This document shows, piece by piece, positions 47,601-50,600 of a DNA stretch of 64,000 nucleotides. The translations under genes were made by a program, and so were the position numbers. Within the stretch, counting starts at the first letter, position 1. Each line of letters begins with the position of its first letter. The notes beneath the pieces were generated by a model. It was given only the letters and a program-made list of their open reading frames with translations. It searched no databases and was not told where the DNA came from. Origin of the DNA: Misgurnus anguillicaudatus (taxonomy: Eukaryota > Chordata > Actinopteri > Cypriniformes > Cobitidae); assembly GCF_027580225.2 (NCBI RefSeq), contig NC_073356.2:8525001-8589000 (forward strand), read 5' to 3'.

Positions 47601-50600
47601 CGAAATGGAGTCGAATCAGAAAGTCTGATCTCATGCACTGTACTTTTGGAGCACCCTACATCCCACTTATGAGCAGAAAACACATCCTGTCTCTCCATGA
47701 GCTTCTCACATAACCGCCTCTTGGCCTCCTCAGGAAGTGGAGAATCACCAAAATTAAATGAATCAAGAGACAACTGAGTATGAGGGACAGAGTCCCCACT
47801 TACCGGAGTCAACTGATGCACAATATCTACAGAAAAGATATGTGCAATGGGGGTTCCACGTTTTAAAGTTACTGCTTTACTGGAAATGTTCCGTACAGTT
47901 ACTGCAACCTTCCGGTTGGACATCTCAGACACTAGCTGTAGCTCAGGTCTCACCAATAGCTCATCAGGTGAATTGATGTTAGATGCCTGGTCAATTAAGA
48001 CATGTGTATCAACCAACTCGTTAAAGAATTTAGGTTTCCCATGAACTTGTAGCACCTCACCTGGTTTCAAAGTAACAGGTTTGTGTTGAATAAACCACAC
48101 TACCCCAGGCCTTTCAGGAGAATCTTTTACCCTAGTGGAATTTTTAATGGTCTTGTAAGCTGCTTTTACAACAGGATGAACGGCCAAAACACTCAGAAAA
48201 TCTTCTCCAGCCTTCTCCTTGCATGCTTTGAACAAGCCTCTGACTAAAGAGGTATTGGTTCCCACTAGAATAGCTATCTGCTGCTCTGGCTGTGGATCAG
48301 GGCACACTAATGCCAGGATATCAACGGTCTGGGACACACCAGCAACATCTTCATCAAAAACAAGGCTAACAGATAAGTAACCATCATAGGGATATTCATG
48401 TTGACTTAAACCCCAAATTTCCAGGTTTTCCACGGGCTTCAAAGGTAGGTGTTTTAAGTAAGTGTGGTAAAAACTACGATACAATATGGTGACCTGGGAA
48501 CCACTGTCTAATAATGCTTTGGCCTTAACGCCTTCAATCAGCACCGGCACATCAGACAGTGGACCCACTAAACCAGAAGGAAATACAGGTGTACAATTGC
48601 TTTCAGCAGACAATGGGGTTAAACACTGTTCAAGGGGAGCCAAGTGTTCCCCACTCACAGGGCTCCTCTGGCGTTTCCCGACTGCCTATTCTGCCTGATT
48701 AGTTTCTGATTAACCTTTCTCAAGTCTTCCACCCCTCTGCATTCCCTTTTTGTATGTCCATCTTCCCCACACTTATAGCAGAAAATGGCAGGTGGATTAT
48801 AACGACCAACATCTTTTTTTTGATTTCCCTCCCTGTCATTTGCATTTAGCGCAGCCCTAGAAACAGCTTTCTGTGTAACTGGAACAGCAGCCGAGGTCTC
48901 AGCAACAGCTGTTAAGAGTTTGCCTACCTGAGCAGAAAGTTCCTGTACATCACGTTTCAAGTCAGCTAACTCATGTGAGGGTGTCTCTTGAGCTACCACT
49001 GCAGAAGACACTAAAACCTTGGATTTCTCACGGGCACTAACCCAGCTCTCTTCCTCGCGCACCTCCCTCAGAAGCTCAGAGAAACTAGGGGGATCACGAA
49101 GCTTATGAGTCATCCTAAGCCTCAATGCTACCATATCTGTAGTAAGTGCTCCTTTAACTACCTGCTCCATTCGTTTTTGGTTTAGCTCCTCCACTTTAAT
49201 GCCTTTTTTTAGAAAGATACGATGGAGTAACTTATCTAGCCGGCACAAGAAAATTGACAGCTTTTCACCAGGTTCCTGGTAGGTATTGCTAAACCTCACC
49301 AGGAGGTCAGACTGACTTTCAGTGCTGCCATAAGCAGTATCAAGAGCCATGAGATATTCAGTGGCAGTTACAGCGGGACTACTGAACTTTAAAAATCTGA
49401 TTATGTCAGCGGCAGGTCCTCTGAGACTCTCCACGATTCGCTGCCGCTTAATAGAATCAGCACACTGCCACTGTCACCATCTGAGCAGCCTGCTCCATCC
49501 AGGAATCATAATCTTCCTCCCCGGGTGGAGTTGGCTGTATGCCTGAGAAAACTCTGAGTTTTCTGTAACTGACGGTATCACCAGGCACATTGGTACACTT
49601 CTCAGCCAGACTATTAATGGCTTGGACTAAATCTAGGTTCACATTAACAGCAGGACTTGGAATTGGGGACTGCTCAGGATTAACAATGGATCTCACGTCA
49701 CACAACGATTTTCCTTCCTGTTGAAGTAAGCACATTAACTTCTTGTGAAACGCATCACCCGGAGCACAGGCATTACCAGGGATATGTACCCTCCAAGGCT
49801 CCACTACTCCAGGGATGCCTACTTCAGGAGGTACAATGGTGGAATCTACCTCCAGACTGGTTTCTATTAAGAGGAACAAATTCAGCCCGGTAGTGTCACC
49901 ACGTCGGCCACAAATTTTTGTACGACCAAAGGCTTTTACAGTGCTAAGTACTTCATTGATGGTTTCATCTGTTACAGTTAAAGGAACGCCACTGAGAACA
50001 ACACAATGCGGAGGACTGACCTGCATTTGCCGGCTCCATTCATCTATTTGATTAAGATCCATGGCTCCCAAAATCATCAAAATCACTGCAACATTACACA
50101 GAATTAGCATAGACAATCAAACATAATAAGCATTGACAACCACACATTGTGAAAAAGGATCCCAGCGGTGCCTCCAAAATGTAACCCTATTGTTATGATA
50201 CTTTGTACAATCTTACTGCTGCACAGAAAATCCTTGACTCTCAGTGTTAGACTTATAGTATGAATTATACTGACCCTTTTTCTATGGTTATGTCAATGCT
50301 TTACCACTAAAGAAAACATATACATGTATAAGCCTCCAAAATGTATTACACCACTAAGTGTTTGAAAGGTAAGAGAATATAAAGTTTATTTAAAGAAAAC
50401 AAAATGTATTAAACCAAAAAGAAATAAACAAATGAAATAAACTGGGTAAAAATAAACAATTATTTTTAAATGATTCTCACAAAAAAAACAAAATACCTCG
50501 TAGTATTCTTAGAAGTAAATCACTGTTCAACAAGCTCTGTGCTTCAAGGTACAGATAATATATCAACTGGGTTTCCTTCAAAATTAACCCCGAACATTTG

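What the first reader, a model, noticed from the sequence alone, without database searches (positions are those of the whole stretch)
48622..48679. Slippery heptamer plus pseudoknot predicted at the gag-pol junction
GGGAAAC lies in the correct phase (TCG GGA AAC) 16 bases before the gag stop. A 6-base spacer leads to a 6-bp GC-rich stem (GGAGCC/GGCTCC), whose loop can pair downstream (AACACT/AGTGTT). The -1 frame is exactly the open 1480-codon pol frame, which lacks a nearby ATG. GGGAAAC is, to my knowledge, the site used by visna-maedi virus; a complete signal of this kind in a fish Ty3/gypsy element with a PNMA-type Gag would be worth documenting.
Basis: partly seen in the sequence, partly recalled or inferred. 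Interest (0 to 1): 0.75.

Follow-up and report, generated by a model that had tools for sequence, protein, structure and literature searches.

The report
Conserved gag-pol frameshift signal, fish retrotransposon
A fish retrotransposon carries what looks like a signal that makes some ribosomes slip back one base to read its enzyme gene, and relatives in the same genome suggest that the RNA knot behind the slip site has been kept while the slip site itself has changed.

Summary
On the minus strand GGGAAAC (48679-48673) lies in phase in a 28-nt gag/pol overlap. A 6-nt spacer and a strong predicted stem follow, and the -1 frame is an open pol frame without a Met codon before the protease motif. 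The element is Ty3/gypsy with a PNMA-type Gag; gag is broken upstream in this copy.

In the window's own genome, all 21 loci found of its clade (6 families) hold GGGAAAC, and 0 of 29 same-frame gag-pol loci analysed do. A sister clade (13 families) has UUUAAAC/U or GUUAAAC there. An H-type pseudoknot at the same place is backed by strong covariation in the sister clade (0.510; shuffles 0.284, 0 of 500) and across both. Within the window's clade it is conserved but covaries little.

The kind is known (retroviruses, PEG10, nidoviruses, animal LTR elements): a new member, with a testable story of slip-site turnover over a conserved stimulator. No frameshifting was measured.

The parts
48673..48679 (-). 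slippery heptamer G GGA AAC
   Evidence: present in 21 of 21 loci found of the clade
48667..48672 (-). 6-nt spacer
48661..48666 (-). stem 1, 5' strand GGAGCC
   Evidence: conserved in the clade, covarying in the sister clade
48636..48641 (-). stem 1, 3' strand GGCTCC
   Evidence: shifted against the relatives' GGAACG
48621..48627 (-). stem 2, 3' strand AGTGTTT, at the place homologous to CGTTCC of the relatives
48649..48655 (-). alternative stem 2, 5' strand AGTGGGG (shares base 48649 with the first choice)
48612..48618 (-). alternative stem 2, 3' strand CCCCATT
48655..48657 (-). gag stop codon TGA
48655..49434 (-). gag, most of the capsid domain and CCHC zinc knuckle (Pfam PNMA, zf-CCHC)
49457..50116 (-). 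gag, N-terminal part in another frame (Pfam PNMA_N RRM-like domain, start of PNMA); gag is broken between the two parts in this copy
44216..48685 (-). pol open frame (protease motif, RT, RNase H, integrase), -1 relative to gag
50180..51591 (-). 5' LTR
42322..44143 (-). 3' LTR, with about 434 bp (42867-43300) not matched in the 5' LTR

Best explanation
The site is the programmed -1 ribosomal frameshift signal by which this family of Metaviridae retrotransposons makes Gag-Pol. Inferred mechanism: ribosomes translating gag meet a downstream H-type pseudoknot 6 nt past G GGA AAC, pause, and a fraction re-pair both tRNAs one base back (GGG AAA) and enter the pol frame; the rest stop 15 nt later and make Gag. 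Shown by sequence: the heptamer, its phase, the overlap, conserved stems in the clade and covarying stems in the sister clade, and no Met codon before the protease motif in this family. Inferred: that slippage occurs, its efficiency, and the exact stem 2 in the window's family. This copy has a broken gag upstream, so the signal here is the family's, not evidence that this copy makes Gag-Pol.
For: Geometry and open frames. GGGAAAC in 21 of 21 clade loci, the gag-frame stop 15 nt downstream in 20 of 21 and 3 nt in L011. 0 of 29 same-frame loci have GGGAAAC or NUUAAAY between knuckle and protease. Among Gag relatives in databases, 38 of 51 with a zinc knuckle end in GNxxGxx, GN being what GGA AAC encodes. 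Two pol-frame relatives (P0106, P0114) read IGKL at the junction, i.e. GGG AAA. Covariation: sister clade alone, 13 families aligned without gaps, 88.0% of 208 cells paired, score 0.510 against 0.284 shuffled (0 of 500) and at most 0.195 slid; both clades without the window's row, 18 families, 85.4% of 288 cells, 0.474 against 0.267 (0 of 500), at most 0.182 slid; all 19, 81.3% of 321 cells, 0.451 against 0.257 (0 of 500), at most 0.185 slid. Geometry at heptamer+7: 17 of 19 families, against 69 of 3249 other offsets in the same loci and 11 of 6880 offsets in 29 same-frame loci.
Against: No translation data. Within the window's clade the stems are conserved rather than covarying: without the window's row 98.2% of 55 cells pair, at most 56.4% slid, but covariation is 0.182 against 0.131 shuffled, reached by 76 of 500. 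The window's family and L090 fail the strict geometry. Two stem 2 choices compete. The nested fold of the junction alone is not unusual. The limits were set, whose shuffles were 60 per sequence. Related rows can exceed shuffles without structure, as the tool warns; further pair types are not beyond chance (131 of 500). Gag in this copy is broken.
Confidence: 0.85

Rival explanations
1. The stimulator in the window's family is an extended stem-loop, or a pseudoknot with a different stem 2 (AGTGGGG/CCCCATT), not the reader's pairing; the slip works the same.
For: The alternative stem 2 is stronger (-13.3 against -10.0 kcal/mol).
Against: Read in a hand-shifted register, the last canonical pair is G-C in four families, G-U in L011 and A-U in the window's, so pairing is kept (sequences; the shift is mine and was not counted by a tool). 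The alternative needs a longer crossing loop.
Confidence: 0.42
2. Pol is expressed without slippage: by internal initiation or reinitiation after the gag stop, or from a spliced mRNA.
For: Gene callers start relatives' pol ORFs at later ATGs, and some database gene models run from gag into other sequence (P0100, P0026).
Against: No Met codon for 252 codons after the heptamer in this family, past the protease motif at codon 57. 0 of 54 loci with a -1 site have an ATG overlapping the gag stop in the pol frame. Same-frame relatives show that a Gag-Pol fusion is a product kept. Gene models are predictions.
Confidence: 0.06
3. The heptamer and stems are a chance arrangement in a decaying element.
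For: GGGAAAC is common in the window (9 against 5.2 expected). Gag is broken in this copy.
Against: 21 of 21 clade loci keep the heptamer, and pairing covaries in the sister clade and across clades.
Confidence: 0.03

Closest known systems
PEG10 (Ty3/gypsy-derived mammalian gene)
   Same: Ty3/gypsy origin, GGGAAAC, 5-nt spacer, pseudoknot, -1 frame into a protease (PMC2800197 and PMC4598141, passages seen)
   Different: domesticated gene of another Metaviridae lineage; Gag is not PNMA-type (PMC11011659, passages seen)
PNMA3 and PNMA5 (Ma3, Ma5)
   Same: PNMA family; Ma3 shifts -1 at about 20% at a classical heptamer with an H-type pseudoknot, Ma5 appears similar (PMC5009743 passage seen)
Betaretrovirus and lentivirus gag-pro/gag-pol signals (SRV-1, MPMV, ovine maedi-visna, FIV)
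   Same: GGGAAAC, spacer 6-7, stem 1 of 6-7 bp, stem 2 of 6 bp (PMC3835772 Table 1 passage); the window family's short stem 1 resembles these
   Different: first loop 1-2 nt there, 11 nt in the window's reader-style knot
Nidovirus ORF1a/1b signals (toroviruses, IBV, EAV)
   Same: UUUAAAC or GUUAAAC, spacer 5-6, stem 1 of 10-11 bp, stem 2 of 6-7 bp (PMC3835772 Table 1 passage), close to the sister clade
   Different: resemblance of shape only, no homology claimed; the window family itself has a 6-bp stem 1
Animal LTR retrotransposons with pol in -1
   Same: 28 of 51 surveyed animal elements had pol in -1, many with heptamers (2003 survey as told in PMC5009743, passage seen)
   Different: the passage says most were in Drosophila; it does not speak of PNMA-Gag fish elements or a conserved knot

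Membership tests
programmed -1 frameshift signal | X XXY YYZ heptamer in phase in the ORF overlap | tested here: met
programmed -1 frameshift signal | 5-9 nt spacer and a stable downstream structure | tested here: met
   (stem 1); stem 2 not unique
programmed -1 frameshift signal | conservation of heptamer and structure in relatives | tested here: met
   heptamer; covariation; conserved, little covariation within the clade
programmed -1 frameshift signal | measured -1 product | not testable with these tools
   needs a reporter or ribosome profiling
Metaviridae (Ty3/gypsy) | LTRs, CCHC Gag, protease, RT, RNase H, integrase in this order | tested here: met
   protease by its DSG motif only (no Pfam protease hit in the pol pieces)
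PNMA-type Gag elements | Pfam PNMA capsid and PNMA_N domains | tested here: met
   in two frames because gag is broken
long-stem (nidovirus-like) pseudoknot of the relatives | at least 8 stem 1 pairs with the apical loop pairing downstream | tested here: not met
   the window's row fails, 17 of 19 families pass

The most novel reading that the evidence does not exclude
One frameshift-stimulating pseudoknot was inherited from the common ancestor of two clades of PNMA-related fish Metaviridae and is older than their slip sites. Over it the slip site has turned over (GGGAAAC, UUUAAAC/U, GUUAAAC, and in a few families GAAUUUU-, GGAUUUU- or GUCAAAC-like sites), and no GGGAAAC or NUUAAAY site is seen at the junction where gag and pol share one frame. 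The frameshift signals of mammalian PNMA3/PNMA5 would then be domesticated descendants of this gag-pol junction.
Probability: 0.45. Interest if true: 0.65.

Novelty: new member of a known kind. Interest (0 to 1): 0.52.

Why it matters
It gives a frameshift signal with comparative support for a retrotransposon lineage with PNMA-type Gag, so the question why PNMA3/PNMA5 frameshift without any pol domain becomes testable as inheritance. It also offers a natural series of slip sites over one conserved stimulator, with same-frame relatives as controls, for asking how slip site and stimulator co-evolve and how Gag:Gag-Pol ratios are set.

Tried and rejected
Rfam over 48400-48900: only a chance hit (TUG1_3, E 1.9). 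IMG/VR and prokaryote contigs with the Gag alignment: no relatives. A pattern search of the genome for heptamer plus GGAAC...GTTCC was swamped by an apparently unrelated GGGAAACCCCGG repeat and was not used. A profile search meant to reach mammalian PNMA3 returned mostly Pseudophryne frog proteins (94 rows; one named mammal, an Elephantulus Ma2 homolog; none named as a mammalian PNMA3), so that link rests on papers. Three papers whose ids I recalled (Ma3, Edr/PEG10, LTR recoding survey) are not held. I first thought that a pol ATG overlapping the gag stop might mean reinitiation; 0 of 54 loci have one.

Rows dropped: of 150 scored protease matches, 110 loci were analysed: 30 cut and 80 of the other 120, chosen by eye to skip rows with like scores. 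Of the 110, 12 lacked a recognised zinc knuckle and one (L009) was shifted by an indel; L009 and L021 are therefore outside the family counts but hold GGGAAAC. The tree used 19 family representatives and 11 of the 29 same-frame loci.

Full report
The element. The window holds a Ty3/gypsy element on the minus strand, from 51591 to 42322. Its LTRs are 51591-50180 and 44143-42322 (12 mismatches in about 1.39 kb of aligned LTR, plus indels, and about 434 bp in the 3' copy without a match in the 5' copy). The ends are TG...CA with ATTA on both flanks. Gag has the PNMA_N and PNMA domains and a CCHC knuckle, split over two frames: the capsid profile runs 1-27 in one and 40-161 in the other, so gag is broken here. 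Among the four other copies of this family the gag frame is open over different lengths, in at least one over 1440 nt. Pol is open and holds RT, RNase H and integrase, with a protease DSG motif 57 codons after the heptamer.

The signal. GGGAAAC at 48679-48673 is in phase (TCG GGA AAC) and 15 nt before the gag TGA. The pol frame opens 6 nt upstream of the heptamer, so the whole overlap is 28 nt. There is no Met codon in the pol frame for 252 codons. Stem 1 is GGAGCC/GGCTCC, 6 nt downstream. The best simple pseudoknot has stem energies -14.4 and -10.0 kcal/mol (second stem GAACACU/AGUGUUU); 0 of 300 shuffles and 1 of 600 window positions score as well.

Relatives as proteins (mostly fish where named). 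Of 95 Gag relatives, 51 have a recognisable knuckle and 38 of those end exactly in GNxxGxx; 13 do not. Of the 13, P0022 has GS in place of GN; five (P0026, P0027, P0028, P0043, P0050) keep GN at the place but differ or are extended after it; three are cut short or diverge after the knuckle (P0030, P0045, P0047); three are from frogs (P0079, P0081, P0089); and one is an unnamed, more distant sequence (P0097). GN is what GGA AAC encodes. Two pol-frame proteins that reach upstream (P0106 Denticeps, P0114 Serrasalmus) read IGKL, that is GGG AAA.

Relatives in the window's own genome (1.12 Gb). A DNA search found five places, the window's included, and a protein search 150 scored protease matches. 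Of 110 loci analysed, 19 have pol in -1 with GGGAAAC, 20 with UUUAAAC, 2 UUUAAAU, 13 GUUAAAC and 14 another site; 29 have gag and pol in one frame, 12 lack a recognised knuckle and 1 is shifted by an indel. The window's clade, recovered also by a Gag search, is 21 loci in this sample and all 21 hold GGGAAAC. None of the 29 same-frame loci has GGGAAAC or NUUAAAY, in any phase, between knuckle and protease. On an unrooted Gag tree made without the heptamer-encoded tail, the six GGGAAAC families are one group (99/98) and the 13 NUUAAAY families another (100/99); the grouping of the 11 same-frame rows is unsupported (32/36).

The pseudoknot. Aligned from the heptamer, 12 of the 19 families need no internal gap and 7 need one of 3 nt. 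In the sister clade alone (13 families, no gaps), stem 1 at columns 14-24/33-43 and stem 2 at 27-31/59-63 pair in 88.0% of 208 cells, 11 of 16 pairs show changes on both sides, and the covariation score is 0.510 against 0.284 shuffled (0 of 500) and at most 0.195 slid. Over both clades without the window's row (18 families) it is 0.474 against 0.267 (0 of 500) and at most 0.182 slid, although further pair types are no more than chance (131 of 500); over all 19 it is 0.451 against 0.257 (0 of 500) and at most 0.185. In stem 2, column pair 29-61 is G-C in 12 rows and A-U in 5, and 30-60 is A-U in 12 and G-C in 5. In the GGGAAAC clade stem 1 sits one column off, so understate it.

Against this: within the GGGAAAC clade alone, without the window's row, stem 2 is invariant at five of six pairs, 98.2% of 55 cells pair (at most 56.4% slid), but covariation is not beyond shuffles (76 of 500). 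So for the window's clade the evidence for the knot is conservation plus likeness to the covarying sister clade.

Geometry at heptamer+7 (spacer 4-8, at least 8 stem 1 pairs, short first and second loops, crossing loop 6-16) is met by 17 of 19 families, by 69 of 3249 other offsets in the same loci and by 11 of 6880 offsets in the 29 same-frame loci; I set these limits. Shuffles per sequence: 0 to 3 of 60 as good in each of the 19.

The window family. It fails the strict geometry, as does L090. Its stem 1 is 6 bp with a weak inner arm, and its stem 2 strand has moved 3 nt relative to relatives (sequences). Read by hand in the homologous 3' place, the last canonical pair is G-C in four families, G-U in L011 and A-U in the window's, and two further pairs are gained. 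The pol-frame peptide TRS, encoded by the relatives' 3' strand, stands in 9 of 15 pol relatives with enough sequence (the script counted 10, one of them in gag); it is absent from the window family's pol frame while pairing is possible, which would fit selection on RNA. A competing stem 2 (AGUGGGG/CCCCAUU) is thermodynamically stronger. So stem 1 is well supported, and stem 2 is probable but not settled.

Sites without a canonical heptamer. Twelve of the 14 'other' loci fall in three families with GUCAAAC, GAAUUUU and GGAUUUU near the gag stop. The first two (9 loci) pass the pseudoknot test at that place, though neighbouring in-phase places pass too; the third (L091, L097, L106) does not pass. 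L062 has a mutated GUUAAAC and keeps the knot; L051 looks like a decayed copy of a same-frame family. Naming these as slip sites is inference; deviant first triplets such as G_GA and G_UU(A) are natural shift sites in viruses (PMC5009743 passage).

Known context. GGGAAAC with 6-7 nt spacers is listed for SRV-1, MPMV, ovine maedi-visna and FIV, and UUUAAAC/GUUAAAC with 10-11 bp stem 1 for toroviruses, IBV and EAV (PMC3835772 Table 1). PEG10 uses GGGAAAC. Ma3 shifts at about 20%. A 2003 survey found 28 of 51 animal retroelements with pol in -1. PMC11011659 notes putative PNMA3/PNMA5 frameshifts of unclear relevance and a PNMA-like N-terminal domain in extant Metaviridae; the passages I read describe no frameshift signal in those elements, and the words GGGAAAC, slippery and pseudoknot do not occur in its text. 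All papers were seen as listings or passages, none whole. Searches of the open-licence library whose listings showed no description of this signal: (titles and abstract starts only; lists capped in 39, 86). Subscription papers are not covered, so priority is not established.

Verdict. A family-wide -1 frameshift signal, most likely real, of a known kind, in a lineage where my searches listed no description. The broader interest is the conserved knot under a changing slip site and the possible origin of the PNMA3/5 signals.

Noticed in passing
L059-L114 (own genome), 13 families: A sister clade has UUUAAAC, UUUAAAU or GUUAAAC with a nidovirus-shaped pseudoknot (stem 1 of 8-12 pairs, stem 2 of 5-7 bp in the 12 of 13 that pass).
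   Followed up: yes
L026-L028, L030-L050, L052-L054, L056, L058 (29 loci, the list): Related elements with gag and pol in one frame and no GGGAAAC or NUUAAAY at the junction: natural controls.
   Followed up: partly
L091, L093, L096 families (12 loci): Pol is in -1 without a canonical heptamer; GGAUUUU, GUCAAAC or GAAUUUU stand near the gag stop.
   Followed up: partly
G000 C18:188292-219099: Five protease matches about 7.6 kb apart on one strand, suggesting a tandem array of elements.
   Followed up: no
window 42867-43300: About 434 bp in the 3' LTR without a match in the 5' LTR of the element.
   Followed up: no
window 43544-43604 and 50959-51033: A 14-bp unit repeats in tandem inside the LTRs, apparently with one more copy in the 5' LTR.
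   Followed up: no
own genome, many places: An abundant repeat starting GGGAAACCCCGGAAATTCCGG, apparently unrelated, swamps pattern searches for the heptamer.
   Followed up: no
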